In this document: positions 28,607 through 59,990 of the stretch, piece by piece
How the letters are laid out: each line of letters starts with the position of its first letter
Numbering within the stretch: the first letter of the stretch is position 1
Assembly: GCF_025152405.1 (NCBI RefSeq)
Contig: NZ_CP102292.1
Location: 2,356,001 to 2,420,000, forward strand
DNA from: [Ruminococcus] lactaris ATCC 29176
GTDB taxonomy: Bacteria; Bacillota; Clostridia; Lachnospirales; Lachnospiraceae
Length of the DNA: 64,000 nucleotides
Reading direction: 5' to 3'
The notes under the pieces: model-generated
The model's input: the letters and a program-made list of their open reading frames with translations, nothing else
The model's database searches: none
Told to the model about the DNA's origin: nothing
Position numbers and translations under genes: made by a program

Positions 28607-29008
28607 TCATCTGCTTTTGTTACAATCACATTTGAAAATCTGTGCCTGTCCATTCTGTTTCCATCCCGCAAAAGTCTGTCCTTCTTTTTCTTCTGCGGTT
28701 ACAGTAATCTTATGATGTCAGGGTCAAAAGGTCTGACACCACGTGTGCCTGCACACTGGTGGTAGAATGACCTTGAGGCCCGCCCCGATATGAGCATAAA
28801 AGTGGGGCGTAAGCACCATGATATGCGAATAGCGGGTAGGATTGTGGGAGTGCGTAGCACGAAACAATCCGTTGGCATCATTGTTGGGGGCTTTTGACCC
28901 CAACATCATCTTATCATTATACTGTCCTCTTGTATACTCTTTTCCATCAACTGCATTCTGCTTTTTGTCTGATTCGGAACTTTTTGTACTTTTGCACAAG
29001 TTAGTCAA
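28607..29008 (-). pseudogene. Surface-protein remnant split by the 194-bp repeat
   Basis: A broken frame. The part 28915-29008 reads SESDKKQNAVDGKEYTRGQ, then the repeat (28714-28907) interrupts it. Removing the repeat and one copy of the duplicated ATAAGAT joins it in frame to ITVTAEEKEGQTFAGWKQNG and a stop at 28607. The joined text resembles one unit of the InlB/Listeria-Bacteroides repeat of secreted proteins (EGxTFAGW). No proper start or signal peptide remains, so the gene was already a fragment. Confidence 0.6.
28714..28907 (-). mobile_element. 194-bp structured inverted-repeat element, copy A
   Basis: A complete non-coding element. Its ends, read as GATGTTGGGGTCAAAAG and the complement of CTTTTGACCCTGACATC, are imperfect inverted repeats. 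It is flanked by the 7-bp duplication ATCTTAT (28707-28713 and 28908-28914), which proves insertion. Internally it folds into several hairpins shared with copies B and C. It encodes no transposase. An open frame through it is a by-product (see rejected items). Confidence 0.92.
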
Positions 29009-29211
29009 TTATATTTTTCTTTTTCCTACAAATTCACTTTGAAATAGGGTATTATAATAAGATGTCGGGGTCAAAAGCCCCCGACTATGATACCTACGGA
29101 TTGTTACGCACTACGTGCTCCCACAATCCTACCCAACATTCGCATATCGTGGTGCTTACGCCCCACTTTTATGCTCATATTGGGGCGGGTCACAAGGTCA
29201 TTCTACCACTA

Positions 29212-30499
29212 GTACAAAAGTTTTTAAATAAATGGACTATATTTCTTTTCTGTAGTATACTGTTCTCATCAAATCAAAAGGAGCATTAAACTATGGGAAG
29301 AAAAGCATCCACTATTAATCTTAGCGAGGACGAACGTTTATATCTTGAAACTCAGATGCGTGCAAGAACAATTCAAGCCCAGACAGTAATTCGGGCAAGA
29401 ATTTTACTACTCAAAGCAGAAGGTATTTCAGTTGACCATATTGCAGACAAAGTAGGAATGAATCGCAAAAGCGTCATGCTCTGTATCAATAAATACCTTG
29501 AGGGTGGTGTGGAAAATGCTCTGTTTGATGCACCCGGTCGTGGCAGGAATGCTGAAATAACCGATGATGAAAAAGCCTGGATAATAAATATCGCCTGTCA
29601 GAAGCCTGTCAATCTTGGATATTCAGCAGAAGTATGGACGCGTGCTCTTCTTACAAAACATATTAATAAATTTGCCGAAGAAGCAGGTCATACAAGGTTG
29701 TCAACAATCAGTCAGTCAAAGGTCCGCACAATACTGGAAGAAGCGGATATTAAGCCTAACAAAATAACTTATTACTGCGAAAATCGTGACCCTGATTTTG
29801 ACCAGAAAATGCATAATGTTCTTCTTGTATATAAACAATTGTCTTTACAGTTTGACGAGAAGGGACAGCTCATTCCGTTTAAGGAGGATGAACAGGTTGT
29901 ACATGTACTTTCCTATGATGAAAAACCCGGAATTCAGGCAATTGCCAATACCACAGAAGACCTCTTGCCGGATGAAAATCACAAGACGGTCAGCCGTGAT
30001 TATGAATATAAACGTCTTGGAACTATTTCACTGCTTGCTGGAATCGACTTACAAACAGGGGAGGCAATTCCGCTTGTAAAAGATAAACACAGCAGCAAGG
30101 AATATATTGAGTTTCTAAAAATACTTGATTCAAAATATCCGGAGACTGACCGGATTCGTCTGGTATTGGATAATCTGAAAGTTCATTCTTCAGAGGAAAC
30201 CCGAAAATACCTTGCGACAAAGCCGGGAAGATTTGAATTTGTGTTTACTCCCAAGCATGGTTCATGGTTGAATCTTGTTGAGGGATTCTTTAGTAAACTC
30301 ACACGTCAGATGCTAAAAGGCATACGTGTAAAAACTAAGGATGAACTTGTGCAGCGTATCTATAGATACTTCGATGAAGTAAACGAACAACCTGTCGTAT
30401 ATCACTGGAAGTATAAGCTTGAAGAAATTAATTCAAGTGAAGAGGTGGTGGTTGATACGTTGCCAATTCAAAAGTCCAGTTAATTAATAACGGTTATAC
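29212..30499 (+). mobile_element. IS630 family insertion sequence
   Basis: A 1288-bp element bounded by TA duplications (29210-29211 and 30500-30501). The ends GTACAAAAGTTTTTAAATAA and the complement GTATAACCGTTATTAATTAA match at 15 of 20 positions. It holds one transposase gene. TA target choice agrees with IS630/Tc1 biology. The element is nested inside copy B of the 194-bp repeat. Confidence 0.92.
29293..30483 (+). CDS. IS630 family transposase
   Basis: DDE transposase of 396 aa, full length and intact. An N-terminal helix-turn-helix region (about 10-80, VDHIADKVGMNRKSVMLCIN) is followed by a GRGRN linker, a second DNA-binding region and the catalytic core with Asp209 (SYDEKPGIQA), Asp293 (LVLDNLKVHS) and Glu330 (WLNLVEGFFSKL). 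AAAGGAGC precedes the ATG. It probably still works. Confidence 0.95.
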   Translation: MGRKASTINLSEDERLYLETQMRARTIQAQTVIRARILLLKAEGISVDHIADKVGMNRKSVMLCINKYLEGGVENALFDAPGRGRNAEITDDEKAWIINIACQKPVNLGYSAEVWTRALLTKHINKFAEEAGHTRLSTISQSKVRTILEEADIKPNKITYYCENRDPDFDQKMHNVLLVYKQLSLQFDEKGQLIPFKEDEQVVHVLSYDEKPGIQAIANTTEDLLPDENHKTVSRDYEYKRLGTISLLAGIDLQTGEAIPLVKDKHSSKEYIEFLKILDSKYPETDRIRLVLDNLKVHSSEETRKYLATKPGRFEFVFTPKHGSWLNLVEGFFSKLTRQMLKGIRVKTKDELVQRIYRYFDEVNEQPVVYHWKYKLEEINSSEEVVVDTLPIQKSS

Positions 30500-30578
30500 T
30501 AGTGTGCAAGCACACGTGGTGTCAGACCTTTTGACCCTGGTATCATAATAATAACGAATCAACGTAGGAGGAATAATT

Positions 30579-30989
30579 ATGATTATATCTACCAGGGGAA
30601 GATATGCACTTCGTGTCATGATTGATCTGGCCGGACAAGATCCGAATACTTATACGCCACTCAAGGAAATTGCAGCACGGCAGGAGATTTCTGAAAAATA
30701 TCTTGAAAATATTCTCAAGTCTCTTGTTACCGGTGGCCTGATCTTTGGACTTCGCGGAAAAGGCGGTGGCTATAAGCTCACTAAGAAACCGGAGGATTAT
30801 ACTATTTCTTCAATTCTCCGTCTCACAGAGGGATCACTTGCACCGGTGGCATGTCTTGAAGAAAATGCGACTGAATGTGAAAGGGAAGCGGTTTGCCCTA
30901 CCCGCCCACTTTGGAAAAAACTGGATACACTGATCCAGGATTATCTTGGCAGTGTCTCACTGAAAGACCTGATTGATGGGACTGTCTGA
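30579..30989 (+). CDS. Rrf2 family transcriptional regulator
   Basis: A 136-aa dimeric winged-helix regulator. It begins with the family motif ISTRGRYALRVMIDLA, has the recognition helix region ISEKYLENILKSL and the wing GLRGKGGGYKL. Three cysteines in the C-terminal half (VACLEE, TECERE, AVCPTRP) match the spacing class that binds an Fe-S cluster in IscR-like members, so it may sense iron-sulfur status or redox. TAGGAGGA precedes ATG. No cysteine-desulfurase gene is adjacent; a terminator follows at once. Confidence 0.92.
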   Translation: MIISTRGRYALRVMIDLAGQDPNTYTPLKEIAARQEISEKYLENILKSLVTGGLIFGLRGKGGGYKLTKKPEDYTISSILRLTEGSLAPVACLEENATECEREAVCPTRPLWKKLDTLIQDYLGSVSLKDLIDGTV

Positions 30990-30990
30990 C

Positions 30991-31047
30991 AAAAAAGAAC
31001 GTTACTCCCGAATGACTGCACATCCATGGAGTAACGTTCTTTCTTTT
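30991..31047 (+). terminator. Terminator after the Rrf2 gene
   Basis: Stem AAAGAACGTTACTCC / GGAGTAACGTTCTTT with a T-rich tail; usable on both strands. Confidence 0.88.
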
Positions 31048-31128
31048 CTATAACTATCTTTATGCCAGACTTCCGCCTGTCTTATACAAAATTTTCCGCT
31101 CTGCTTTCCTCTCTCTTTTTAACTTCTC

Positions 31129-31821
31129 TTATACCTTGAAGCGGTATCCGACCCCCCAAATTGTCTCAATGTACTGTGGATGAGATGTGTCATATTCAAT
31201 CTTTTCACGGATCTTTTTAATATGTACGGTAACTGTTGCAATATCTCCTATTGACTCCATATCCCAAATCTCACGGAATAATTCTTCCTTTGAATAAACA
31301 TGGTTTGGATGTCCTGCCAGAAACGAAAGCAGATCGAACTCTTTTGTTGTAAAGGAACGTTCCTCACCGTTCACCCATACACGTCTCGCTGTCCGGTCGA
31401 TCTTAAGTCCGCGGATCTCTATCACATCATTCTGTTCCACAACACTTCCGATCAGACGCTCATATCTTGCAAGATGGGCTTTCACGCGTGCGACCAGCTC
31501 GCTTGGACTAAACGGCTTCGTCATATAATCATCCGCACCAAGTCCCAGTCCACGGATCTTGTCAATATCATCTTTCTTCGCTGAAACCATAATAATTGGA
31601 GTATTTTTCTGCCCCCGGATCTGACGGCAGATTTCAAATCCGTCAACTCCCGGCAGCATCAGATCTAAAATAATCAGGTCAAATTCTACGGCAAGTCCTC
31701 TCCGAAGACCTGTCTCTCCGTCATTTGCTACTTCTACTTCAAATCCACTCAGCTCCAGATAATCTTTCTCCAGATCTGCAATGCTTTCTTCATCTTCCAC
31801 GATCAAAATACGTTTACTCAT
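31129..31821 (-). CDS. OmpR/PhoB family response regulator
   Basis: A 230-aa regulator. The receiver domain (1-120) has the acidic pocket IVEDEES, the phospho-acceptor Asp in LIILDLMLPGVDGFE (about 53) and the Lys in MTKPFSPSEL. The C-terminal winged helix (about 130-230) ends TIWGVGYRFKV. Its gene follows and overlaps the kinase gene by 8 bp, so they form a two-component pair. The signal is unknown. Confidence 0.95.
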   Translation of the reverse strand: MSKRILIVEDEESIADLEKDYLELSGFEVEVANDGETGLRRGLAVEFDLIILDLMLPGVDGFEICRQIRGQKNTPIIMVSAKKDDIDKIRGLGLGADDYMTKPFSPSELVARVKAHLARYERLIGSVVEQNDVIEIRGLKIDRTARRVWVNGEERSFTTKEFDLLSFLAGHPNHVYSKEELFREIWDMESIGDIATVTVHIKKIREKIEYDTSHPQYIETIWGVGYRFKV

Positions 31822-32869
31822 TCACCGGTACCTCCTGATACTTCCTTATTACAAAATACATCGTAGTACCAACGCCCTCTTCGCTGGTAGCCCAGATATT
31901 TCCGCCATGCTCCTCCACGATCTTCTTCACGATCGAAAGTCCGATACCACTTCCTCCTTTTGAAGAATTTCTTGAAGCATCCGCACGATAGAACCGGTCA
32001 AAGATAAACGGCAGATCCTTTGCCGCAATCCCTCTTCCATTATCTCCCAGCTCTATCTGGATAAAATCTCCCACGTCCTTTACATCCATCGTAATCTCCA
32101 CTTTCGGTTTATCTGTATACTTCAGCGAATTTGATACGATATTATTGATGACTCTTCTTAACTGTTCCGGATCTACGATCACTTTACAGTCATCATCCAT
32201 AAAGTTTCGGTATGTAAACTCTGCCCCTTTTGACTCCAGCTCCACACTCAGATCTTCTGCACAGTCTCCAAAATAACCTTTTGCAGAGATCGTTGTGAAA
32301 TTATATGGAATCCTGTTCGTATCGATCTTGGAGTAAAGGGTCAGCTCATTGATCAGAAGATTCATCTCATTAGCCTTATTATAAATGGTTCTGATGTATC
32401 TGTCCATCTTTTCCGGTGTATCTGCCACACCATCCATAATTCCTTCCACATAACCTTTGATCGCTGTGATCGGAGTCTTCAGATCATGTGAAATATTACT
32501 GATCAGTTCCTTATTTTCCCGGTCAAACGCAACCTTTTCCTCTGCCTGCACCTTCAACCGAAGACGCATTTCCTCAAAATCCCTGCAAAGCTGCCCGATC
32601 TCATCATCATTTTCTGCTTTAATCTCAAAATCCAGATTTCCTTCTTTGATATTCCTTGCCGCTTTCTGTAATTTTTGCAGCGGCACTGATACCGCACGAT
32701 AAATCCATATGATCAACAATGCTGCCGTGATGGATACGACGATCAGATACATCTGCTGGATCTCCGTTGCCTTTTCCGGTACAAATGCCCTTGTCATCAC
32801 TCCGGTAAAAAGCATCGGAAATACCATGACCACCATAAATACGATAACGAGTTTTGTCTTAAGCTTCAT
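31814..32869 (-). CDS. Sensor histidine kinase
   Basis: A 351-aa membrane kinase with two helices (about 7-29 and 41-60) separated by only a short outer loop, so it probably senses membrane or intramembrane signals. A HAMP domain (about 60-112), the H-box ISHDLKTPITAIKGY and the ATPase boxes NNIVSNSLKYT, DNGRGIA and GGSGIGLSIV follow. The translational overlap with the regulator supports equal expression. Confidence 0.95.
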   Translation of the reverse strand: MKLKTKLVIVFMVVMVFPMLFTGVMTRAFVPEKATEIQQMYLIVVSITAALLIIWIYRAVSVPLQKLQKAARNIKEGNLDFEIKAENDDEIGQLCRDFEEMRLRLKVQAEEKVAFDRENKELISNISHDLKTPITAIKGYVEGIMDGVADTPEKMDRYIRTIYNKANEMNLLINELTLYSKIDTNRIPYNFTTISAKGYFGDCAEDLSVELESKGAEFTYRNFMDDDCKVIVDPEQLRRVINNIVSNSLKYTDKPKVEITMDVKDVGDFIQIELGDNGRGIAAKDLPFIFDRFYRADASRNSSKGGSGIGLSIVKKIVEEHGGNIWATSEEGVGTTMYFVIRKYQEVPVNE

Positions 32870-32906
32870 TTGCAGCTCCTTTCCGAAAATCGAGTATGAT
32901 TAACGA

Positions 32907-32944
32907 AAGGTGCCTGAACCTTTTCAGGAGATCAGACACCTTCT
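32907..32944 (-). terminator. Terminator after metK
   Basis: Stem AAGGTGTCTGA / TCAGGCACCTT in the 142-bp gap between metK and the kinase gene; the T-run is short. Confidence 0.65.
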
Positions 32945-33011
32945 TTTGATACTTCTGCTTATTTTACAGATTCTACAAATATTTCTTTCATTTTTGAGAT
33001 ATTCTTTCACT

Positions 33012-34205
33012 TTACAGATATTTCTTTAAATCTTCTACCTTGTCAAGTTTCTCCCACGGAAGATCCAGGTCATTACGTCCAAAATGTCCGTAAGCGGCTG
33101 TCTGCTTGTAGATCGGTCTTCTCAGATCCAGCATCTTAATGATTCCTGCCGGGCGGAAATCAAAATTCTCACGAAGGATCTCAACCAGCTTTGTATCAGA
33201 TAACTTTCCTGTACCAAATGTATCAACTGCGATAGAAGTCGGCTGTGCCACACCGATCGCATAAGAAAGCTGGATCTCACATTTCTTTGCAAGTCCTGCT
33301 GCTACAATATTCTTTGCTGCATAACGTGCTGCATAAGCTGCAGAACGGTCTACCTTTGTGCAGTCTTTTCCTGAAAATGCTCCGCCACCGTGACGTGCCA
33401 TTCCACCATAAGTATCAACAATGATCTTACGTCCTGTCAGTCCACTGTCTCCGTGAGGTCCGCCAATTACAAACCGGCCTGTCGGATTTACAAAGAATTT
33501 CGTCTCATCATCTACCAGCTCTGCCGGGATGATCTCATCGAATACATACTTTTTGATATCCTCATGAATCTGCTCCTGAGATACTTCCGGGTCATGCTGC
33601 GTAGAAAGCACAACTGCATCCAGACGCTTTACAGAACCATCTTCATTGTACTCTGCAGTTACCTGAGTCTTTCCGTCCGGACGCAGGTAAGTCAGCGTTC
33701 CGTCTTTGCGAACTTTAGTAAGCTGAAGTGCAAGCTTATGTGCCAGTGCGATCGGATATGGCATATACTCTTCTGTCTCATCAGAAGCATAACCGAACAT
33801 CATTCCCTGATCTCCTGCTCCAATGGCTTCGATATCTTCATCTGACATCTTATTTTCTTTTGCTTCCAGAGCCTTATCAACTCCCATTGCAATATCTGTT
33901 GACTGCTCATCCAATGTTGTGAGTACACCGCAGGTATCTGCATCAAAGCCATATTTTCCTCTTGTATATCCGATCTCGCGAACTGTATCACGAACGATCT
34001 TCTGGATATCTACATATGCTTTTGTAGTGATCTCTCCCATAACCATAACAAGACCTGTTGTACAGCATGTCTCACATGCAACACGGCTCATCGGATCCTG
34101 ACGCATTAACTCATCCAGAATCGCATCTGAAATCTGATCACACATCTTATCCGGATGTCCCTCTGTAACTGACTCAGATGTAAATAAAATCTTTTCCTTT
34201 TCCAT
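33012..34205 (-). CDS. metK: S-adenosylmethionine synthetase
   Basis: Makes S-adenosylmethionine from methionine and ATP; 397 aa, normal length. The signatures [32 protein letters not shown] and GGGAFSGKD are intact. The frame opens at 34220, but AAAGGAG lies inside that stretch 5 nt before ATG 34205. It is controlled by an S-box leader about 440 bp upstream, so the product represses its own gene. GC-rich tandem repeats lie between the leader terminator and the gene. Confidence 0.97.
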
Positions 34206-34265
34206 AAGTTCTCCTTTCACTCACTTTCTCTTCTGCTTACTGCTTTCACGTAATATCGCCTTCGT

Positions 34266-34520
34266 CCGCCTGACCTGCCCCGCGGAACCTCGATTCCGCT
34301 TCGCTTCATCTCGGTCGCGGGCGGCCTGCTCTTCTTCCGGTACAGGTTTTCTGACTGCCTCCGCCTGACCTGCCCCGCGGAACCTCGATTCCGCTTCGCT
34401 TCATCTCGGTCGCGGGCGGCCTGCCCTTCTTCCGGTACAGGTTTTCTGACTGCCTCCGCCTGACCTGCCCCGCGGAACCTCGATTCCGCTTCGCTTCATC
34501 TCGGTCGCGGGCGGCCTGCC
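34266..34520 (-). repeat. 95-bp GC-rich tandem repeats, 2.7 copies
   Basis: Units begin at 34266, 34361 and 34456 (period 95) and are nearly identical. On the minus strand each holds the hairpin GCGGAA-TCGAGG-TTCCGC and the text GACCGAGATGAAGCGAAG. The base composition is much richer in GC than the neighbours. They sit in the metK leader transcript. Confidence 0.93.
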
Positions 34521-34524
34521 TATA

Positions 34525-34579
34525 CCCTGGCAACTCTCTGTCTGCTCACGCAAGCGTGGCAGCCAATGAGTTGTCAGGG
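34525..34579. repeat. Long hairpin next to the tandem repeats
   Basis: Outer arms CCCTGGCAACTC (34525-34536) and GAGTTGTCAGGG (34568-34579) enclose an inner stem CTGCTCACGC / GCGTGGCAG with an AA loop. Both stems pair almost completely. It lies between the S-box terminator and the repeats and is followed by the same GCAGGTCAGGC text as the repeat units. Confidence 0.8.
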
Positions 34580-34602
34580 TGCAGGTCAGGCTTTAATACG
34601 CG

Positions 34603-34630
34603 AAAACAGTCCGCATAAGGCGGACTGTCA
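34603..34630 (-). terminator. S-box expression-platform terminator
   Basis: Minus strand ACAGTCCGC-CTTAT-GCGGACTGT followed by TTTTC, directly after the riboswitch. Confidence 0.85.
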
Positions 34631-34645
34631 ATCTATCGTAACAAT

Positions 34646-34748
34646 CCTCTTATTGTTCGAGTAACTCGCTCAGGTTGGCACCTTCCTTTATAATGTGGGG
34701 TTGCCGCAGCTTCTTAGATCCTTTGTATCTCCACTGCTCTGAATAAGA
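34646..34748 (-). promoter_or_regulatory. SAM-I (S-box) riboswitch
   Basis: The minus strand shows CTTATTCAGAGCAGTGGAG at the 5' end, GCTGCGGCAACC, AAGGTGCCAACCTGAGCGAG and the closing GAACAATAAGAG, which pairs with the 5' end. These are the conserved S-box elements in order. SAM binding would favour the adjacent terminator and shut off metK. Confidence 0.92.
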
Positions 34749-34789
34749 GAAAGTTTCTTTATTAAATTAGTATTTTACTTTCGTATCAG

Positions 34790-34818
34790 ACTATACAACG
34801 CATTGTCTATTATGTCAA
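34790..34818 (-). promoter_or_regulatory. Sigma-A promoter for the metK leader
   Basis: Minus strand TTGACA (34813-34818), 17-bp spacer, TATAGT (34790-34795). Confidence 0.85.
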
Positions 34819-34896
34819 TATAGTTTAGAAAACTTTCATTATATTTTCTTATCTATGACTTCCCAGTAACCATACTTTGGGAATCCATTTCACAAG

Positions 34897-36054: not shown

Positions 36055-36686
36055 TCTGCTTTTCCTTCCTCTTCTGACAGCGTCATCATTCCTGACATAA
36101 TGCAGCCACCCTTTGCTCCGGCTTTGGCGAGTTCTTTCCACTGCTCCGGCTCAAAATGGATCCCACCGATCCCATAGACCGGCAGCCTCACTGCATCACA
36201 GACTTCTTTCAAAAATCTGATTCCCCTTGGAGGAACGCCTTTCTTACAATCCGTCACATAAATATGGCCTGCCACCAGATAAGATGCCCCCAGCTTTTCC
36301 GCTTCAACCGCTTCTTCCACCGAGTGAACCGAAGTCCCTATCTGATAAAATGTTCCGCTGCCCTGATTTTTCTCCTGTATCACAGCCTGATTCACCAACT
36401 GCCGCAGCACAGGAAGTGGGAGATGAATCTGGTTACAGTTTAATTTTACCGCAATTTGCCAGAAATTGTGAAGAATACATGGAACTTTATACGTTTCACA
36501 AATTTTCATTACCTGTCCGGCCAGTTGTTCATACTCCGCTTCTGTCAGATCCTTTTCCCTTAAAATCAGTGCTTTGGGATGCCATTCGCATACTATTTTG
36601 ATCTGCTCAAGGAACGGTCTTTTGCACAAATGCCGGTTGCTGACTGCGATCACATTTTCGCAGTACTCCTGATTTTCCTTATACAT
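36051..36686 (-). CDS. tenI: ThiE/TenI family protein, probably thiazole tautomerase TenI
   Basis: A 211-aa TIM-barrel protein. Both ThiE (thiamine phosphate synthase) and TenI belong here. The segment GTSVHSVEEAVEAEKLGASY, then AGHIYVTDCKKGVPPRG and VYGIGGI, follows TenI closely: TenI proteins have GHVFETDCKKG where ThiE has a pyrophosphate loop with Thr-Lys. I therefore favour the aromatising tautomerase acting on the ThiG product. It overlaps thiH by 8 bp upstream and glycerate kinase downstream. Databases may label it ThiE. Confidence 0.75.
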   Translation of the reverse strand: MYKENQEYCENVIAVSNRHLCKRPFLEQIKIVCEWHPKALILREKDLTEAEYEQLAGQVMKICETYKVPCILHNFWQIAVKLNCNQIHLPLPVLRQLVNQAVIQEKNQGSGTFYQIGTSVHSVEEAVEAEKLGASYLVAGHIYVTDCKKGVPPRGIRFLKEVCDAVRLPVYGIGGIHFEPEQWKELAKAGAKGGCIMSGMMTLSEEEGKAE

Positions 36687-37962: not shown

Positions 37963-37973
37963 TCTGCTGCCTC

Positions 37974-39418: not shown

Positions 39419-39421
39419 TTT

Positions 39422-48187: not shown

Positions 48188-48385
48188 TCCCCGCACCAGC
48201 GACCGGCAGGTTTCCTGACTTACAAATCTTATGCCCGAACGCCTTCCCGGTCTCCCAGTGGCTGCGTCTTCACGCCTGCCGGTCACATTTGCTTACAGTG
48301 ACGAGTTCGTGCAGGAATTGCACCTGCTTCCCTTTTACCTGTTGCTATATCTTCCTATATAGAACAGCACCGAACGCTTTATTTA
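48188..48385 (-). promoter_or_regulatory. Cobalamin riboswitch
   Basis: The minus strand carries the ordered elements GTTCGGTGCTG, GGAAGCAGGTGCAATTCCTG, CACGAACTCGTCACTGTAAG, the B12-box-like GCCACTGGGAGACCGGGAAG, and AGTCAGGAAACCTGCCGG. It lies about 190 bp before the 1529-aa gene and controls the importer operon; B12 would lower expression. Confidence 0.94.
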
Positions 48386-48399
48386 CTTTTTTCTTCGCT

Positions 48400-49543: not shown

Positions 49544-49615
49544 GATGTCGGGGTCAAAAGCCCCCGACTTTGATGCCCACGGATTGCTCCGTGCTACTCA
49601 CTCTCACAATCCTAT
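49544..49615 (+). mobile_element. Truncated copy D of the 194-bp structured repeat
   Basis: The first about 70 bp of the element (GATGTCGGGGTCAAAAG to CACAATCCTATC). The right part is missing, and the second hairpin is damaged (GTGCTACTCAC). It encodes the stop and last residues of the oxidoreductase on the other strand. Confidence 0.88.
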
Positions 49616-50561
49616 CAAATATTTTGGCACATTCCAATGTCATCCGATGTGGAACTATGCTGCTTTCAGTCTTACCATTTCGTACACAGTCAACCATTTC
49701 TTTGATTTCATACACAAACCCATTTTCCGTCACCTGATCGGAATATTGCTCTATCAGCTTTCCCTGCCCATCGTACAAAACGATCTGATCTGCATAATGC
49801 GGATGTCGGATCATTATTTTTCCTTCTGATCCTGTCAGTTCCAGTCTTTCATCTACATTTGCCAGATACGTGGCAGTCATAAACGAAAGATGCTCCTCAT
49901 ACCGAAGTATAACATGTTCCGTCACATCCACCTGATCTTCATTGTAGATTACCTGAATCTGTTCTTCCTTCCAGTCTTCACCACAAAAATACATCGTCAG
50001 TGCCAACGCATAAATTAACAGATCCAATGCCGCCCCTCCACCGGCTTCTTTGTTAAAATAGCGATTTTCTTTATTCTTCGGAGCTGTAAATCCGATTTCA
50101 ACATTACTGACTGCAAGTTTACCGATACGCCCTTCCCGCAACCATTCTCTGGCTTTTCTATTTGCAGGAAGAAAAAGACTCCATACTCCCTCCATAACAA
50201 AAATTTTCTTTTCTTCTGCCAGCTTGAAAATTCTTTCTGCCTCCTCCGAACTTCCTGTCAATGCCTTTTCACACAAAACCGGAATCCCGTATCTGATACA
50301 TAATTCTGTCAACTGCACATGCATTCCGGTAACCACACCAATATAGACCCCATCCAGCTTTTCTTTCTGAAGCATTTCTTCATAATTTCCATAATAGGTA
50401 TGTATTTCATATTTCTCTGCAAACTCTCTGGCTCTTTCTTCTGATCTCGCTGCTACAGCAGTCACACAGACCTCTTCTGTCTTCTCTGCTGCATCGCAAA
50501 ATTTATTTGAAATATTTCCGGCACCCATAACGCCAAAACGAAAAGTTTCTTTCTTTTCCAT
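49554..50561 (-). CDS. Gfo/Idh/MocA family oxidoreductase, repeat-derived C-terminus
   Basis: NAD(P)-dependent sugar or polyol oxidoreductase, 335 aa. The Rossmann start is FRFGVMGAGNISNKF, the dinucleotide-binding CEKALTGSSEEAERIF has Ala where most relatives have Pro (EKP), and the C-terminal fold has GGGAALDLLIYALAL. About the last 19 residues (IVRVSSTEQSVGIKVGGF) come from the repeat fragment, which also supplies the TGA stop. The native tail was thus replaced; activity may remain because the active site lies upstream. Substrate unknown. Confidence 0.85.
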   Translation of the reverse strand: MEKKETFRFGVMGAGNISNKFCDAAEKTEEVCVTAVAARSEERAREFAEKYEIHTYYGNYEEMLQKEKLDGVYIGVVTGMHVQLTELCIRYGIPVLCEKALTGSSEEAERIFKLAEEKKIFVMEGVWSLFLPANRKAREWLREGRIGKLAVSNVEIGFTAPKNKENRYFNKEAGGGAALDLLIYALALTMYFCGEDWKEEQIQVIYNEDQVDVTEHVILRYEEHLSFMTATYLANVDERLELTGSEGKIMIRHPHYADQIVLYDGQGKLIEQYSDQVTENGFVYEIKEMVDCVRNGKTESSIVPHRMTLECAKIFDRIVRVSSTEQSVGIKVGGF

Positions 50562-52031: not shown

Positions 52032-52095
52032 ACTGACTATTATAGTCTTCTTTTCATAAAACACCAGTACCAACTCATTTATCTTCTTTTTTACT

Positions 52096-53760: not shown

Positions 53761-53955
53761 TTATTCACCTTTCAGTTTTCTTATTTTTCTGCGACAAACT
53801 GAGCCGATTGACAAAATGATCATAATAAGACTGATCCATTGAGATGTTGAAATTCCCATCATACTTCCTCTGACCGCATCATATCGCAAATTTTCAAGTA
53901 CAAATCTTATCATACCATATGTCAGCAAATAAGTTTCTATTGTATAATACCACTT
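53761..53955 (-). pseudogene. lgt: C-terminal fragment of prolipoprotein diacylglyceryl transferase
   Basis: About 62 residues resemble the end of Lgt: YLLTYGMIRFVLENLRYDAV, then GISTSQWISLIMIILSIG and a basic tail. The N-terminal three quarters, with the catalytic His and Arg, are absent. The fragment starts 5 bp after the ClC stop and ends where pucR begins. A start codon is missing. It looks like the scar of a deletion that joined ClC to a lost lgt. Confidence 0.7.
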
Positions 53956-53959
53956 CTTT

Positions 53960-55264
53960 TTAATGTGTCTTTTTATTGATATATCTTGCCTTATATTTTG
54001 AATAAACGATCGTCTGGTCTTTATACAGACTGTAATATCCCGACAGGGCATAACTGATCGAAATGGCGATCAGATAATACGCTGCCCCTGAAAATCCAAA
54101 TAATTCAAATGAGATCAGCATGGATGCGATCGGACAGTTCGTCACTCCGCAGAATAATGCCACCATGCTTGCCGCTGCTGCAACTTCCGGAGAAAAACCA
54201 AGCAGTCCACCTGCCACACAACCGAATGTGGCTCCCACTGAAAATGCCGGAACGATCTCCCCACCACGATAACCTGCCCGCATCGTGATCGCTGTCAGGA
54301 TCATTTTCCACAAAAAGTCTAACGGTCTTGCTTTTCCCTGTTCCACTGCCCTTGCGATCAGTTCATTACCTGCTCCCATATAATCTCCTGTTCCAAGAAG
54401 CATTGTGATCCCGATCACCAGACATCCTGCCACACAGACACGAAGATACGGGTTCTTCAAATATTTTCCATAAATCCCGGATACTGCCTTTAATGCCACG
54501 CAGAATAAAATGCTCAGCAATCCACAACCGGCTGCGATCACTGCCATCTTCAAGCCGCTCTCAACACTTAATTGTGGAATCCTTGCAACCGGAAATGTCT
54601 CCGGGTTCAGACCAACTCCTGTCGCAAACTCTGCGGCAATGATCGATGCGATCACACACGGCAGTAATGCTGCATAATACATCACCCCCACGCTGACAAC
54701 TTCCATCGCAAAGACTGCCGCTGCCATCGGTGTTCCGAAAACTGCAGCAAACGCCGCACTCATTCCACACATGATCATCACATGATGATCTGTCTCATCC
54801 AGATGCACCAGCTTTGCCAGCCAGCTTCCGATACTGCCTCCAAACTGGATCGATGCACCTTCCCTTCCTGCAGAACCTCCGGTCAGATGCGTCAGTAATG
54901 TAGAAATAAAAATCAGCGGGGCAGAGATAAAGGGAACATTATCTTTTGACTTGATCGTTGATAAAACCTGATTCGTTCCTCCATCCTGTCTTCCCAGCCT
55001 TTCATACATAAATACGATCACGATTCCTGCCAGCGGAAGGCAGAGAAATACCCATAGATGACTGTTTCTGTATTCAGTTGCCGCACTGATACAGGCTGCA
55101 AATGCACTGCTTGCCCCACCGACCACCAGTCCGGTCAGAATTGCCAGTAACATCCATTTGATAAAATTAGTAACATCCCGCCTGATCCGTTCGTAATAAT
55201 ATTTTATAAGAATTTTCTTTTTTGAAGATCCGATCGATAACCCTTTTTCTTTCTCTGTCTGCAT
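53960..55264 (-). CDS. ClC family chloride/fluoride channel or antiporter
   Basis: A 434-aa membrane protein with about ten or eleven helices. The second ClC signature reads GSAGREGASIQFGG, where most Cl-/H+ antiporters have GREGP, and GYRGGEIVPAFSVGATFG replaces GxFxP. This resembles the fluoride-exporting CLC-F branch, but I cannot prove the ion. No fluoride riboswitch is seen upstream. It stands divergent from nothing and is followed by the lgt fragment. Confidence 0.85.
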   Translation of the reverse strand: MQTEKEKGLSIGSSKKKILIKYYYERIRRDVTNFIKWMLLAILTGLVVGGASSAFAACISAATEYRNSHLWVFLCLPLAGIVIVFMYERLGRQDGGTNQVLSTIKSKDNVPFISAPLIFISTLLTHLTGGSAGREGASIQFGGSIGSWLAKLVHLDETDHHVMIMCGMSAAFAAVFGTPMAAAVFAMEVVSVGVMYYAALLPCVIASIIAAEFATGVGLNPETFPVARIPQLSVESGLKMAVIAAGCGLLSILFCVALKAVSGIYGKYLKNPYLRVCVAGCLVIGITMLLGTGDYMGAGNELIARAVEQGKARPLDFLWKMILTAITMRAGYRGGEIVPAFSVGATFGCVAGGLLGFSPEVAAAASMVALFCGVTNCPIASMLISFELFGFSGAAYYLIAISISYALSGYYSLYKDQTIVYSKYKARYINKKTH

Positions 55265-55375
55265 GATATTCCCCTTACCTCTTTTCTATTTTCCAGTGTA
55301 TCAAAAAAGCGGAATAAAGTGAAGTGTTAACAGCACTTTCCGGTCAGCTTTCCAGTTAGTTTCCTAAAAATTTTC

Positions 55376-55432
55376 CAAAAAAAGAACCCGGAAATCTTCT
55401 TTTATCAAGAAAATTTTCGGATTCTTTTTTCC
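55376..55432 (-). terminator. Terminator after the BASS gene
   Basis: Inverted arms AAGAATCCG / CGGGTTCTT with inner TTCTT / AAGAA and T-runs on both sides; usable on both strands. Confidence 0.7.
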
Positions 55433-55467
55433 TGCTTAGAACCGGTTAAGTTTCCTTTGCAACAGCA

Positions 55468-56463
55468 TTATTTCTTTTTGCATTTATCATAAAATGCAAA
55501 CATTCCTGCCAGTAATGTTCCTGAAATTGAATGCCATGTACAGGATACTGCACAGATGATCGCTGACTCCGGTGTAGATGCAAACTGAGCTGTCGTTGTG
55601 GCAAGATTGGTTGCAAGTCCTGCATTCTGCATACCGACCTCGATCGCAATCGTTCTCTTCTTCGCTGTATTCATGCCAACCAGTCTGCCTGCCCCGTAAC
55701 CAAGCAGATAACCAAGTCCGTTGTGAAGGAAGACTGCAACAAAGATGATAACTCCTGACTCAAAGAATTTTGCACCCTGAGAAGATACAACTCCACCAAC
55801 CACGCATGCCAGTCCAAGTACGGCGATTCCCGGCATTATTTTCTGCAGTTCACCAAATGTCTTTTTCTTTCCGAATAAATAGTTCAGCAAAAATCCAAGT
55901 GCAACCGGAAGAATGACTGTCTCTACGATAGACACCAGCATTGGAAGTGCCTTAATTGAAATATGCGTTCCGCTGGCAAGGAATGAAACCAAAAATGGTG
56001 TCATCACTGGTGAAAGGATCGTGGAAACCGTTGTCATTCCAACAGAAAATGCCACATCCCCTCCGCACAGATAAGACATGATATTGGATGACACTCCTCC
56101 TGGACAGCATCCGACCAGAATCAGGCCAAGTGCGATTCCGTCCGGAAGGTTCAAAAGCTTTGTCAGTCCTAATGCCAGAAATGGCATGATCAGATACTGG
56201 GCGATCGCACCCACACAGATATCAAAAGGTCTCTGGGCAAGAATCTTAAAATCCTCAGTTGTCAATGTCAGTCCCATACTGAACATAATGACTCCGATGA
56301 TGATCGACTGGCACGTAAACTTATTGGATACCGGATCTGTAAATAACTGGAGATTAACCCATCCCATCATTCCCGGTACAAAGAACGTAATGACTGCAAT
56401 CGCAATTACTACGATTGAAGTATAATCTGATAAAAATTTGCTGACTTTCTGTAATGCTTTCAT
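55468..56463 (-). CDS. Bile acid:sodium symporter family (BASS) transporter
   Basis: A 331-aa membrane transporter of about ten helices, Na+-coupled uptake of an organic anion. Family blocks are MFSMGLTLTTEDFKIL, LVGCCPGGVSSNIMSYLCGG (the Pro-Gly crossing helix) and AIEVGMQNAGLATNLA. Bacterial members take up pantoate or keto acids rather than bile acids. The T-box leader makes an amino-acid-related substrate likely. AAGGAGG precedes ATG. Confidence 0.92.
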   Translation of the reverse strand: MKALQKVSKFLSDYTSIVVIAIAVITFFVPGMMGWVNLQLFTDPVSNKFTCQSIIIGVIMFSMGLTLTTEDFKILAQRPFDICVGAIAQYLIMPFLALGLTKLLNLPDGIALGLILVGCCPGGVSSNIMSYLCGGDVAFSVGMTTVSTILSPVMTPFLVSFLASGTHISIKALPMLVSIVETVILPVALGFLLNYLFGKKKTFGELQKIMPGIAVLGLACVVGGVVSSQGAKFFESGVIIFVAVFLHNGLGYLLGYGAGRLVGMNTAKKRTIAIEVGMQNAGLATNLATTTAQFASTPESAIICAVSCTWHSISGTLLAGMFAFYDKCKKK

Positions 56464-56492
56464 TACATTTCCTCCTTACTTCTGTCCACTCA

Positions 56493-56788
56493 ATAAAAAA
56501 GTCCCTTTTCAGAAATCAATCTGAAAAGGGACGAATATAATCCGCGTTACCACCCTGATTCCGCAAAAAATCTGCGGCTCTTCACATACCAGCATATGCT
56601 ATCCATATAACGGTGGATACCGGCGAGGTTTACTGACGTGCATCACGCTTTCAGCCCGCTTCTTAGAGAGGATATCCTTATCCGGTTATTACCTGCTCAC
56701 ACCACCCACAGGCTCTCTGAAAATAATCTCGAATATGACTTTGTTCTCATCAACGAATTTGGTGAACAATATTTTCTTTACGGGGATT
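56493..56788 (-). promoter_or_regulatory. T-box leader of the BASS gene
   Basis: The T-box sequence AGGGTGGTAACGCGG is at 56542-56556 on the minus strand. A terminator follows (56493-56532, GTCCCTTTTCAG / CTGAAAAGGGAC, six T). Upstream, the stem I arms AGAGAG / CTCTCT enclose a GGTGGTGTGAGC-type distal region. The specifier is probably in the GGATATC just before CTCTCT; ATC (Ile) is one reading, not certain. Uncharged tRNA would allow transcription. Confidence 0.88.
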
Positions 56789-56816
56789 ATTATAGTCCTC
56801 TCACGAAATAAGTCAA
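56789..56816 (-). promoter_or_regulatory. Sigma-A promoter of the T-box transcript
   Basis: Minus strand TTGACT (56811-56816), 16-bp spacer, TATAAT (56789-56794). Confidence 0.8.
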
Positions 56817-56826
56817 GTGAAAATTT

Positions 56827-57906
56827 TTACTCTTCGCTCTGCTGATTTTGTTCAATTTTTCCAACTGTCACATGATGGATCATTCCAAGAACTGATTCAT
56901 TTGCATTTACCGGAATTAACCGGATTGATGGATGTCGATTCTGAAATACCCGGAATATTTCATCTGCAAACCCCTGCCCCATGAAATCAATTCCCTGAAA
57001 ATCAAAAATGATCTCCTCAAACTCATCCAGCCGACGCAGAATCCTTCTTGCCTGTGAACGTGCCACCGGATTTCCCAGCGGACACATCTCTCTCATTGGG
57101 ATTTCGGTTCTCACAAACCCTCTTTCGATCGGTGCAAAACGGTCAAATATATCCTTTGATGTATGTGCTGGCTGATTTTCCAATTTCATCACTACCATCG
57201 TCCCCACTTTCTCTAACCTCGTATAATATGCAATCAGATGCGACCGGATAAAACTTTCCCTGTTTTCGCTTTTCATGGAAAAAATCGCATGATCTGATAA
57301 TATTGCAAACTCTGTCAACATCCTTGATGAAAAAAAGATGCCTTCTCCTGAATGTTCTTTTAAATTTGTCGTAAGCTTTCCTTTATATAATTCAAGAACT
57401 GCCTGTTCTGTACTGACATTTTTTATCCCATGAGCTAAGAGATACTTCTGTATATTCTTAAAAACTCCAATCCCATCATCTACAATAGAAATCTCTGTAT
57501 ACAGGCAATCTCTCTTTACTGCATAACTGATCTTTTCTGCTTCTGAATGCTCGATAGCATTATTCATGATTTCAGCAAATGTATATGCCCATATATCTTT
57601 TGCATTTTTCGAAATTTCCTTCAGTTCCGGTAAAATCTCTGCGTAAAAGATTTGATCCTCTTCTAAAGTTCCATCATTACTGACACTCCATTTTTTCTCA
57701 TAAGTTACAAGTCGATAACCACACTGATTTTTATTTGATACTTCAATCAACTTTTTATCTATGCACATCTTTACATAACGCCGTACAGATGTCTCTGAAA
57801 TAGAAAATACTTCTGCTGTCTTTTTCAGAAAAAGTGTATCATCCATACGGATTTTTTCTAACATATATAATTGTATCGCTTTTCTCTTCTCTTCACTGAA
57901 TGACAC
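56827..57906 (-). CDS. Winged-helix / HATPase / STAS-like (DUF4325) protein
   Basis: A 359-aa predicted regulator with three parts. A winged helix (about 1-70, KKTAEVFSISETSVRRYVKM) is followed by a GHKL ATPase domain with N-box AEIMNNAIEHS (111-121), DDGIGVFKN (143-151) and GEGIFF (187-192), and a C-terminal STAS-like DUF4325 domain (about 255-345, EEIIFDFQGIDFMGQGFADE). The parts resemble an anti-sigma kinase and its antagonist joined in one chain with a DNA-binding head. The role is unknown; partner switching or signal-dependent DNA binding are possibilities. It precedes the T-box gene by its own unit. Confidence 0.8.
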   Translation of the reverse strand: MSFSEEKRKAIQLYMLEKIRMDDTLFLKKTAEVFSISETSVRRYVKMCIDKKLIEVSNKNQCGYRLVTYEKKWSVSNDGTLEEDQIFYAEILPELKEISKNAKDIWAYTFAEIMNNAIEHSEAEKISYAVKRDCLYTEISIVDDGIGVFKNIQKYLLAHGIKNVSTEQAVLELYKGKLTTNLKEHSGEGIFFSSRMLTEFAILSDHAIFSMKSENRESFIRSHLIAYYTRLEKVGTMVVMKLENQPAHTSKDIFDRFAPIERGFVRTEIPMREMCPLGNPVARSQARRILRRLDEFEEIIFDFQGIDFMGQGFADEIFRVFQNRHPSIRLIPVNANESVLGMIHHVTVGKIEQNQQSEE

Positions 57907-57995
57907 GCTTCCTTTTCCTTTCTTTAAATCATAATTTTTAAACTATATTTTCTATTTATTAAACTATAGCATTTCCTGATTTAATTTTCAATACA

Positions 57996-58060
57996 CAAAA
58001 AAAGACCTTCTCCGGTGTTCGGATTTTTCCACATTCATCCACCGGAAACGGTCTCTTTTT
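57996..58060 (-). terminator. Terminator after the FKBP gene
   Basis: Arms AAAGAGACCGTTTCCGGTG / CACCGGAGAAGGTCTTTT with a long loop and T-run on the minus strand. Confidence 0.85.
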
Positions 58061-58086
58061 CACTTTTCTCTAAAGTTATCCACTTT

Positions 58087-58548
58087 TTATTTCACTTCTA
58101 CAAGTTCAATCTTAAAGTTAAGCTCTTTGCCTGCCATCTCATGGTTTGCATCAAAAGTGATCGTCTTCTCTTCTTTTTCCAGTACTTTTACCGGAAATGG
58201 CTGTCCGTACTGATTAGAAAGATAAACCTGCTGTCCAACTTCCAGATTCTCTGATCCCGGAAGCTGTGCGATCTCAAGTGTAAAAATTGCCTCCGGATCC
58301 GGCATACCATAAGCTTCTTCCGGCATCAGATGAATATCGACAATCTGTCCCACTTCCATATCCGCTACAGCCGCATCAAATCCTTTAATCATCTGACCTG
58401 CTCCACAGACAAATTCCAGTGGCTCTCCACGGTCATAAGAAGAATCAAACTGCGTTCCGTCATTAAAAGTTCCCCGGTAATGAGTACGGCATGTCTTTCC
58501 GACATTACGTCCTGTCAGTGTGTTCTCATTTGTTCCTGTATCTGGCAT
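58087..58548 (-). CDS. SlyD-like FKBP peptidyl-prolyl isomerase
   Basis: A 153-aa cytoplasmic isomerase and chaperone. The FKBP half has RTHYRGTFNDGTQFDSSYDR and GAGQMIKGFDAAVADMEVGQ. An inserted flap domain (about 85-135) and the text FDANHEMAGKELNF are typical of SlyD. The metal-binding His/Cys tail of E. coli SlyD is missing. It follows the FUSC gene by about 20 bp. Confidence 0.92.
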   Translation of the reverse strand: MPDTGTNENTLTGRNVGKTCRTHYRGTFNDGTQFDSSYDRGEPLEFVCGAGQMIKGFDAAVADMEVGQIVDIHLMPEEAYGMPDPEAIFTLEIAQLPGSENLEVGQQVYLSNQYGQPFPVKVLEKEEKTITFDANHEMAGKELNFKIELVEVK

Positions 58549-58568
58549 TTACAAATCCTCCATTCATT

Positions 58569-59633
58569 TCATTCAGTCTCTGTGGAACCAGTATAAGCTG
58601 ATATGGCTGTAAAAGCAAGCCCCAAACCTTTACTGCATACCACTGTATACACTGCACTGAATACATTTGCTCCGATCCTGAGTGCCACCGCATACGGCAT
58701 CCCGAAAAGTCCTGAAGCGATCGACAATGCACCAAATGTGTTAAATGCAGTCTGCCATGCGTACCCCGCAGAATATCCTACTCCGATTCCTCCGATCATT
58801 CCGATATATGGATAAAATGATTGGGGAAGCAGCAGATACAGTCCGGCAAATAACAGACATCCTACTATATTAAATGCAGCTCTTTTTCCGGCTCTCTCCA
58901 GCCCGTCCTCCGGGAATGGAAGACATACCGACATACAGGCGATTCCCGCCCACATTGCCCTGGGCAAGCCTGCCAGCGACATAAACAGCATTGCACTGGA
59001 AGCGATCAATGCCAGCCGGATATACCATCTGCTTCTTGCGGAATGGACATCAAACTCCCTGAACAGATCAAGGAATGTCCTGCGATATGGTCTGTTCTTC
59101 TGATTTTTATAAAATATGATCATACAGAGAATCATTCCGACCAACAGCCCTTCCACTCTGCGGACATACATCTTGCCTGTTACGTCATATCCCTGGAGCA
59201 GAAGATACCCCAGTACAAAAGTAGAATGATTATACATGATCACATTATGACATCCAAGGATCATCAAAAGTAAGATGCAGATTACATTAATAAAAAATGC
59301 AGGAACCGGAGAAACCAGATTGCTGATCCTCGGTCCTGTCATCAGGATCGTAAAGATTCCCAGGATCGATCCAAGACCATGTGTAGTCCGTATTCCAAAA
59401 TCTGCCTGTCGCAGTACAAGCACAGCTAACAGGACTGTAACTCCTACTACACTGTTATCTTTTCCCGTCAGACTACTGTACAATGATACCACTGCCACGC
59501 AAAAAGCCATGACCAGATATACCTTAAAATTATAGATCAGAATATGTCTTCTTTTTTCCTTCTTATCTTCTGTTGCCCGGATCAGTTGCTTCGACCCAAC
59601 CGAACTAAGCTGTAGTTCCTGATAAATTGTCAT
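58569..59633 (-). CDS. FUSC family membrane protein
   Basis: A 354-aa protein with about ten helices in two halves, related to fusaric-acid-type exporters (FUSC). Blocks include FGIRTTHGLGSILGIF, RVEGLLVGMILCMIIF and RAMWAGIACMSVCLPFP. The two 5-helix halves each end with a conserved R-E/G-x-G motif. The frame opens at 59810 by chance; AGGAGG just before ATG 59633 sets the true start. It probably exports an aromatic or other weak acid. Confidence 0.82.
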   Translation of the reverse strand: MTIYQELQLSSVGSKQLIRATEDKKEKRRHILIYNFKVYLVMAFCVAVVSLYSSLTGKDNSVVGVTVLLAVLVLRQADFGIRTTHGLGSILGIFTILMTGPRISNLVSPVPAFFINVICILLLMILGCHNVIMYNHSTFVLGYLLLQGYDVTGKMYVRRVEGLLVGMILCMIIFYKNQKNRPYRRTFLDLFREFDVHSARSRWYIRLALIASSAMLFMSLAGLPRAMWAGIACMSVCLPFPEDGLERAGKRAAFNIVGCLLFAGLYLLLPQSFYPYIGMIGGIGVGYSAGYAWQTAFNTFGALSIASGLFGMPYAVALRIGANVFSAVYTVVCSKGLGLAFTAISAYTGSTETE

Positions 59634-59715
59634 ACTGCCATTTCCTCCTGCTATTTTTCCAAAGCAACGAGAAACTATAATACAATTTTGCAGATACGTC
59701 AAGCTGAATCTGACA

Positions 59716-59755
59716 TAAAAATACCCCCGGGAACTTGACTCATCCCCGGAGGCAT
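59716..59755 (-). terminator. Terminator upstream of the FUSC gene
   Basis: Arms TGCCTCCGGGGA / TCCCGGGGGTA and a T-run on the minus strand. It would stop transcripts from the surface protein gene after passing repeat copy C. Confidence 0.75.
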
Positions 59756-59796
59756 CCATACCTGTTCTGCTGAATCCATTTGTCAGGCAACTTATT

Positions 59797-59990
59797 GATG
59801 TCGGGGTCAAAAGCCCCCGACTTTGATGCCTACGGATTGCTCCGTGCTACGCACTCCCACAATCCTACCCAATATTCGCATATCGTGGGATTATCATCCC
59901 ACTTTTATGCTCATATCGGGGCGGGTCCTAAGGTCTTTCACCCACCTATGAGCAAGCTCATGTGGGCTTAGACCTTTTGACCCTGGCATC
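59797..59990 (+). mobile_element. 194-bp structured inverted-repeat element, copy C
   Basis: Complete, with the 8-bp duplication AACTTATT on both sides (59789-59796 and 59991-59998). Its hairpins differ from copies A and B but still pair: GTGGGAT-TATC-ATCCCAC against GTGGTGC-TTAC-GCCCCAC, and ATGAGC-AA-GCTCAT against GTGTGC-AA-GCACAC. Confidence 0.93.

What the first reader, a model, noticed from the sequence alone, without database searches (positions are those of the whole stretch)
28714..59990. A 194-bp mobile element whose hairpins change by compensating base pairs
Copies A (28714-28907), B (29061-30544, minus the IS) and C (59797-59990) are all exactly 194 bp, with inverted ends and 7-8 bp target duplications. 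Between copies, paired bases change together. Hairpin 1: GTTGGGG/CCCCAAC against GTCGGGG/CCCCGAC. Hairpin 2: GTGC-TAC-GCAC against GCAC-TAC-GTGC inside GGATTG/CAATCC. Hairpin 3: GTGGTGC/GCCCCAC against GTGGGAT/ATCCCAC inside GCATA/TATGC. Last hairpin: GTGTGC/GCACAC against ATGAGC/GCTCAT inside AAGGTC/GACCTT. Ordinary non-autonomous elements do not need such conservation. A folded RNA or single-stranded DNA intermediate appears to be under selection.
Basis: seen in the sequence. Interest (0 to 1): 0.78.

Follow-up and report, generated by a model that had tools for sequence, protein, structure and literature searches.

The report
Mobile DNA carrying a structured RNA
A 194-letter DNA element that has spread through this gut bacterium's chromosome turns out to be a known but unexplained structured RNA, whose fold has been kept through changing sequences in related bacteria.

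Summary
A, B and C are copies of one mobile family with 17-bp inverted ends and 7-8 bp target duplications; B is split by an IS630-like element. They match Rfam RF01699, "Clostridiales-1 RNA", an orphan family of 2010. The genome has 109 matches; 161 of 299 sampled same-family genomes have at least one. Across 57 sequences from 45 genomes, 26 of 29 predicted pairs show compensating changes and 97.4% of cells pair: the fold is selected. But A, B and C belong to three old subfamilies. Private mutations of single copies break pairs freely (57 breaks, 30 keeps, 1 double) with no G-U excess: single copies decay, only source lineages keep the fold. I read it as a MITE-like DNA transposon carrying RF01699, moved by an unidentified transposase; no longer element with these ends was seen in 2.0 Mb of fetched DNA, and no reverse transcriptase in the genome. 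Unexpected: RF01699 copies without inverted ends mostly lie sense to their neighbours, often starting at the upstream stop codon (21 of 60 within 5 nt; mirror position 1 of 60).

The parts
28707..28713 (.). Copy A, left target duplication ATCTTAT
28714..28907 (+). Copy A, full-length 194-bp element, RNA sense on +, subfamily II (3 differences from its consensus)
28714..28730 (+). Copy A, 5' terminal inverted repeat GATGTCAGGGTCAAAAG
28713..28880 (+). RF01699 match in copy A, 139.7 bits
28891..28907 (-). Copy A, 3' terminal inverted repeat; its inner part is the outer arm of the 3' terminal hairpin GTTGGGG...CCCCAAC
28908..28914 (.). Copy A, right target duplication
29054..29060 (.). Copy B, left target duplication ATAATAA
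29061..30544 (-). Copy B, subfamily III element split by an IS; 194 bp without the 1,290-bp insert (1 difference from its consensus)
29088..29217 (-). RF01699 match in the left piece of copy B, 92.8 bits
29214..30503 (.). Insert in copy B (IS630-like), repeating ACTAGT at its edges; edges uncertain by 6 bp
29293..30483 (+). 396-aa transposase of that IS: DDE_3 (PF13358) plus HTH domains
30545..30551 (.). Copy B, right target duplication
59789..59796 (.). Copy C, left target duplication AACTTATT
59797..59990 (-). Copy C, full-length element, RNA sense on -, subfamily I, identical to its consensus
59824..59991 (-). RF01699 match in copy C, 157 bits
59991..59998 (.). Copy C, right target duplication
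26233..26276 (+). Truncated copy keeping only the RNA-3' end (about 44 bp)
49544..49623 (-). Truncated copy keeping only the RNA-3' end (about 80 bp); weak RF01699 match 49571-49710

Best explanation
The element is a non-autonomous DNA transposon (MITE-like) that carries the structured RNA family RF01699. SHOWN: similar 17-bp inverted ends (consensus GATRYYRGGG[T/G]CAAAAG); mostly exact 7- or 8-bp duplications of AT-rich targets (roughly AWTnnnAWT); empty and filled versions of one target repeat; high copy number; deep covariation of the RNA fold; subfamilies, mosaics and internal-deletion derivatives; near-neutral decay of single copies. INFERRED: a trans-acting DDE-type transposase, not found here, cuts at the inverted ends. 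The RNA fold is selected in the few source lineages because the RNA itself does something when transcribed, probably as part of read-through transcripts, since the RNA begins at the first base of the element and leaves no room for a promoter upstream of it inside the element. The RNA domain also exists without the inverted ends, mostly sense-oriented between genes, so I infer that a cellular or cis-acting RNA was captured by a pair of transposase-recognised ends, as eukaryotic SINEs captured tRNA or 7SL sequences (recalled comparison), but in a DNA transposon.
For: RF01699 matches for A, B, C and 109 in the genome. 66 copies used (65 of 194 bp; one of 196 bp, cut at 194): 38 exact 7-bp and 12 exact 8-bp duplications, 10 with one mismatch, 6 none, of which one is exact at its true end. 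Other genomes: 47 of 84 entries show a direct repeat of 7 bp or more (three of the 47, L161, L165 and L197, only 85-90 bp beyond the RNA; one place entered twice). Target repeat: CAAATAGTAAATACAATATC intact at one locus, interrupted at others with TAGTAAA duplicated. All 146 inverted-end pairs with a TSD in 1,997,706 fetched bases are under 260 bp apart except IS-split copy B (some places are held in more than one locus, so 146 is not a count of distinct elements). Covariation: 97.4% of 1,631 cells paired, 26 of 29 pairs with double changes, 325 double-change cells against a shuffle mean of 88.9, slid controls 27-45% paired. G-U 28 against A-C 11, p 0.009. The closing stem, whose strands lie about 160 nt apart, covaries in 4 of 4 pairs.
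Against: No helper was found: no longer element with the same ends in the fetched DNA; PF00872 gave 0 matches in the genome; the 4 PF01609 copies have other ends; other transposase families were not searched genome-wide. Truncated copies keep the RNA-3' end far more often than the 5' end (26 against 6, p 0.0005; one of the 6, 838242, may be a diverged complete copy), which a symmetric cut-and-paste model does not predict. Two truncated copies (831387, 1176347) carry an exact 7-bp repeat at the broken end. Single copies show no significant protection of paired positions (94 of 152 private changes, p 0.065). RNA expression was not tested.
Confidence: 0.72

Rival explanations
1. RNA-mediated mobility (SINE-like, target-primed reverse transcription): the folded RNA is copied into DNA at a nicked target, giving 5'-truncated copies with target duplications.
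For: Among 43 solo or internally deleted ends examined, 26 keep only the RNA-3' end and 6 only the 5' end. Copies 831387 and 1176347 have exact 7-bp repeats at the truncation point; 2238991 has an inverted segment before a near-match.
Against: No RVT_1 (PF00078) match in the genome. Duplication length is nearly constant. Both ends share a 17-bp inverted sequence. Most one-ended copies have no duplication.
Confidence: 0.07
2. Single-stranded DNA transposition (IS200/IS605, REP/RAYT or another HUH enzyme) acting on DNA hairpins.
For: Hairpin-rich element; 59 of 75 full-length copies point against the replication fork.
Against: IS200/IS605 elements make no target duplications (recalled); these do. 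Target preference plus strand composition predicts about 66% anti-fork (58-65% above looser score cut-offs, 32 against 4 at the strictest, with a matrix made from the same sites). G271 shows no anti-fork excess. G-U exceeds A-C.
Confidence: 0.04
3. No selection: hairpin-templated repair of imperfect palindromes creates apparent compensation in palindromic DNA.
For: Many short nearby inverted repeats; snap-back-like derivatives exist, such as the 28-bp palindromes at 171928 and 864139.
Against: Within subfamilies 57 pairs are broken and only 1 is doubly changed, so no continuous repair is seen. The long-range closing stem covaries. Unpaired motifs such as ATGAG and CGAAT are nearly invariant.
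Confidence: 0.05
4. Ordinary MITE whose fold only limits damage in host transcripts (as proposed for BOX/RUP), with no RNA function of its own.
For: Pneumococcal repeats with extensive secondary structure are thought to affect co-transcribed genes (PMC3049150, passages). TIR-bearing copies of other genomes show no orientation preference (11 --, 14 ++, 12 +-, 12 -+ of 54).
Against: Conserved unpaired nucleotides and a junction kept across 45 genomes exceed what insulation needs (judgement). Copies without inverted ends keep the same core.
Confidence: 0.2

Closest known systems
Rfam RF01699, Clostridiales-1 RNA (Weinberg et al. 2010, PMC2864571; four main-text passages seen)
   Same: Same RNA: matches far over the gathering score.
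   Different: The table passage lists it as probably an RNA and probably not cis-regulatory; the word 'mobile' occurs 0 times in the main text. Mobility, inverted ends, target duplications and the 3' terminal hairpin (outside the 166-position model) were not seen there. Its supplements could not be read.
BOX and RUP repeats of Streptococcus pneumoniae (PMC3049150, passages)
   Same: Small dispersed repeats, TIRs paired within the folded transcript, structured RNA, high copy number.
   Different: Recalled: RUP makes TA duplications and is linked to IS630-Spn1. Here 7-8 bp duplications, no known helper, spread over many genera, with a compensated multi-branch core.
Prokaryotic MITEs in general (review PMC10969869, one passage)
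   Same: Direct repeats, intergenic AT-rich targets, structured transcripts; also TIRs and no coding capacity (recalled).
   Different: No IS parent with the same ends was found; the internal region is a conserved RNA family, not a visible deletion derivative of an IS.

Membership tests
RF01699 Clostridiales-1 RNA | Covariance-model score over the curated cut-off | tested here: met
   139.7, 92.8 and 157 bits against 48
RF01699 Clostridiales-1 RNA | Consensus secondary structure | tested here: met
   The minimum-energy fold of copy C has the same closing stem and three arms as the Rfam structure line; a few pairs of the first arm are mismatched
MITE | Terminal inverted repeats | tested here: met
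   17 bp at both ends; pattern 107 forward and 113 reverse against 1 and 2 in the reversed-pattern control
MITE | Target site duplications of fixed length | tested here: met
   50 of 66 exact at 7 or 8 bp, 10 with one mismatch, 6 none
MITE | Short, no transposase gene, many copies | tested here: met
   194 bp, 109 matches; the ORF list shows no transposase ORF inside A (C was not listed but is the same length); the one in B belongs to the inserted IS
MITE | Autonomous partner with the same ends | tested here: inconclusive
Retrotransposed SINE-like element | Reverse transcriptase available | tested here: not met
   PF00078: 0 matches in own genome
Retrotransposed SINE-like element | 5' truncation bias | tested here: met
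   26 RNA-3' against 6 RNA-5' solo ends
IS200/IS605-derived element | No target duplication (recalled) | tested here: not met
   Duplications of 7-8 bp
BOX-type structured repeat | Transcribed and structured | not testable with these tools
   Structure shown; transcription needs RNA-seq

The most novel reading that the evidence does not exclude
RF01699 is a selfish RNA with two life forms: (1) a TIR-bearing DNA transposon that scatters and decays, and (2) a TIR-less form placed sense-oriented at the ends of genes (at stop codons and, in examples read by eye, directly after terminators), often in tandem head-to-tail units. Form 2 would arise by a targeted or transcript-level insertion, or by strong selection for a translation-termination-linked function, and form 1 would be its export vehicle.
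Probability: 0.1. Interest if true: 0.85.

Novelty: new variant of a known kind. Interest (0 to 1): 0.6.

Why it matters
It gives an orphan Rfam RNA family an identity: a small mobile element found in about half of the sampled genera of one bacterial family. It offers a natural case in which RNA-level selection on source copies can be separated from neutral decay of dead copies, and it raises a concrete question: why TIR-less copies begin at stop codons. It also warns that covariation among mobile repeats can mark the source lineage and not the function of each copy.

Tried and rejected
Target-primed reverse transcription was taken seriously because of 5' truncation; weakened by no PF00078 match, near-constant duplication length and shared inverted ends. 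IS256-type helper: 0 PF00872 matches. IS4-type helper: 4 PF01609 copies whose right end reads TCCCATCTTTGACAG inward, not similar. Autonomous element with the same ends: none seen. Plasmids: no match; phages: 20 unannotated faecal records, not pursued. Replication-fork coupling: strong in this genome (59 of 75, p 6e-7; still 20 of 25 in convergent or divergent gene contexts), no such excess in G271, largely predicted by target sequence and strand composition (partly circular); not related to copy divergence (12:4, 22:4, 19:5 anti:co). Empty site of copy C in genus relatives: only one relative aligned to a flank, inconclusive. Rpn-like gene: copies sit in a repeat beside one such gene (family name recalled, not tested), no evidence of a role.

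Stop codons: TIR-bearing copies of other genomes also show 11 of 57 within 5 nt against 1 of 57, but their mirror was measured from the RNA's 3' end and not from the element's end, so it is not a fair control; measured from the element ends in this genome there is no preference (4 sense, 6 antisense of 66). TIR-less against TIR-bearing copies (21 of 60, 11 of 57) is p 0.065. For this I lowered the novel case from 0.13 to 0.10.

Rows dropped before counts: 4 of 66 copies unclassified by the subfamily rule and 4 diverged or mosaic copies (503401, 1653941, 2064046, 2563915) are not in the private-mutation count. L183 and L202, repeats of L148 and L209, were left out of the context counts. 20 copies with a 5' end only were kept apart (++ 8, -- 3). 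The covariation set is 54 of 99 sequences left after removing those over 90% identical, plus 3 from this genome. The 5-nt stop-codon window was chosen after the first set was seen; the second set repeats it: 10 of 25 sense against 1 of 25 mirror, p 0.005. Pattern lists show only about the first 100 of 107 and 113 ends. One search scored only the 9 best candidates per genome.
Full report
WHAT IS THERE. The three copies are as described: A and C are 194 bp, B is 194 bp plus a 1,290-bp insert carrying a DDE_3/HTH transposase gene. Each has inverted ends and a 7- or 8-bp target duplication. A cmscan identifies all three as RF01699, Clostridiales-1 RNA. Positions 1-167 of the element are the Rfam RNA: a closing stem (GATGCC with GGCATC) around three arms. 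The last 27 bases form a further hairpin whose outer arm belongs to the 3' inverted repeat, and Rfam does not model it. The sense strand of C folds to this structure at -104.6 kcal/mol, z -10.9; the other strand gives -86.5, z -9.8.

A MOBILE FAMILY. The genome (2.73 Mb, one contig) has 109 RF01699 matches at E <= 0.001 and 220 matches to the end sequence, against 3 for the reversed-pattern control. After fetching stretches around them, 66 copies were used; 50 have exact duplications of 7 bp (38) or 8 bp (12), 10 have one mismatch and 6 none. One of the 6 (425287, two extra bases, cut at 194) is exact at its true end. Recurrent derivatives of 113 bp (6, of which 3 with exact duplications) and 75 bp (7, of which 4) exist, as do forms of about 81 bp. 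In other genera, seven forms of about 36 bp consisting of little more than the two ends have flanking repeats, 4 exact at 7 bp and 3 with one mismatch (read from the printed flanks); these could be deletions made in place. Another repeat of the genome shows the uninterrupted site CAAATAGTAAATACAATATC and interrupted versions with TAGTAAA duplicated. The consensus target in RNA-sense orientation is nearly palindromic, AWTnnnAWT with a T-rich core, as expected for a dimeric transposase (inference).

SPREAD. RF01699 occurs in 161 of 299 sampled genomes of the family, one per genus (130 over the curated cut-off), but in only 9 of 291 sampled genomes of the class: seven of the same family, one of the same order, one weak match elsewhere. 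Of 84 entries from other genomes, 47 show a direct repeat of at least 7 bp, three of them only far beyond the RNA.

IS THE FOLD SELECTED? Across 57 sequences (54 of 99 kept after removing those over 90% identical, plus 3 from this genome), 97.4% of 1,631 cells form standard pairs. 26 of 29 pairs have changes on both sides, with 325 such cells; shuffles average 88.9 cells, and slid structures pair 27-45% of cells. Shuffles do not allow for relatedness. RNAalifold found this structure on a plain MAFFT alignment. G-U cells number 28 and A-C cells 11 (p 0.009), which favours the RNA-sense strand. The long-range closing stem covaries in all four pairs counted, so the signal is not confined to short palindromes.

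AT WHICH LEVEL? The window copies belong to three subfamilies (A: II, C: I, B: III). Between subfamily consensuses, 12 of 31, 16 of 33 and 10 of 21 differing positions are compensated on both sides. Within subfamilies, 152 private substitutions in 57 copies fall 94 in paired and 58 in unpaired positions (134 of 194 positions are paired; p 0.065). They break 57 pairs, keep 30 and doubly change one, with A-C 27 against G-U 26 (correcting). Individual copies are therefore close to neutral, and the selected object is the source lineage.

MECHANISM. Shared 17-bp inverted ends, near-constant duplications and end-only derivatives point to a DDE-type transposase acting in trans. None with these ends was found: the 146 end pairs with duplications in 1,997,706 fetched bases (overlapping loci included) are all short, except the IS-split copy B. 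PF00872 is absent, the PF01609 copies have other ends, and PF00078 is absent; other transposase families were not searched. Reverse transcription is the main rival because solo RNA-3' ends outnumber solo 5' ends 26 to 6; I give it 7%.

A SECOND FORM. Seventeen genomes have one to three RF01699 matches. Most of the copies read there lack the ends and duplications while keeping the fold, including a variable closing stem (L146 and L212 have ends and duplications). Copies without the inverted ends are sense to both neighbours more often than antisense to both (20 against 5 of 38; copies with both ends 14 against 11 of 54; with the second set 29 against 8, p 0.0008). In 11 of 35 the upstream gene's stop codon ends within 5 nt of the RNA start, mirror 0 of 35. 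An independent set gave 10 of 25, mirror 1 of 25; combined 21 of 60 against 1 of 60, p 1.6e-6. Against a clean split of two forms: copies with ends in other genomes also start near stop codons (11 of 57), the difference from 21 of 60 is p 0.065, and this genome's own copies show no preference (4 sense, 6 antisense of 66). Several others follow terminator-like hairpins (read by eye), and tandem units occur with spacing from small overlaps to about 13 nt (coordinates). ORFs were called by a simple length rule, without annotation, so these counts need repeating.

ORIENTATION. In this genome 59 of 75 full-length copies point against the replication fork (p 6e-7); short and truncated copies do not (22 of 50). 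A-rich intergenic sequence along the fork combined with the T-rich target predicts about 66%, and G271 lacks the excess. I treat it as mostly a target effect.

NOVELTY. RF01699 was published in 2010 as a probable RNA (PMC2864571, passages). Searches for its name, its accession, MITE terms and its end sequence listed no paper whose title or abstract describes it as mobile; four other papers that hold the name or accession (PMC3466250, PMC7302867, PMC7682815, PMC6808178) were seen in listings only. The library is open-access only and supplements could not be read. Structured MITE transcripts are a known kind (PMC3049150, PMC10969869, passages). I file this as a new variant of a known kind.

Noticed in passing
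L209-L224, L379-L391, L412-L441: RF01699 copies without inverted ends lie mostly sense between genes, often starting at the upstream stop codon or just after a terminator-like hairpin.
   Followed up: partly
G062:C5:256720-257222 and 1148792-1149190; G204:C54:13583-13921; G259:C4; G069:C4; L379; L380: Tandem head-to-tail RF01699 units with almost no spacer.
   Followed up: no
own genome, G000:C1: 59 of 75 full-length copies point against the replication fork; 113-bp forms do the opposite (0 of 6 anti-fork).
   Followed up: yes
own genome, copies 503401, 1653941, 2022283, 2064046, 2563915: Mosaic copies that combine segments of different subfamilies, suggesting recombination or gene conversion between copies (read from the sequences).
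   Followed up: no
L243, L248, L266, L301, L307, L314, L321: Elements of about 36 bp consisting of the two ends back to back, 4 with exact 7-bp flanking repeats and 3 with one mismatch.
   Followed up: partly
L209: A single-copy RF01699 RNA lies about 30 bp upstream of the RNase P RNA gene on the same strand.
   Followed up: no
L031 1113-2216 and flanks; own genome 171957, 262011, 505790, 845496, 1239403, 1500428, 1525647, 2228155: A second dispersed repeat, seen next to a 367-aa gene resembling Rpn nucleases (name recalled), is a repeated target of the element.
   Followed up: partly
own genome 912971, 751162 and window 29214: The IS630-like element of copy B also abuts the copy at 912971, again at CTAG; the copy at 751162 has a different insert at the same kind of site.
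   Followed up: no
window 56524-56762, 48188-48389, 34647-34749 (all -): T-box leader, cobalamin riboswitch and SAM riboswitch over their gathering scores.
   Followed up: no
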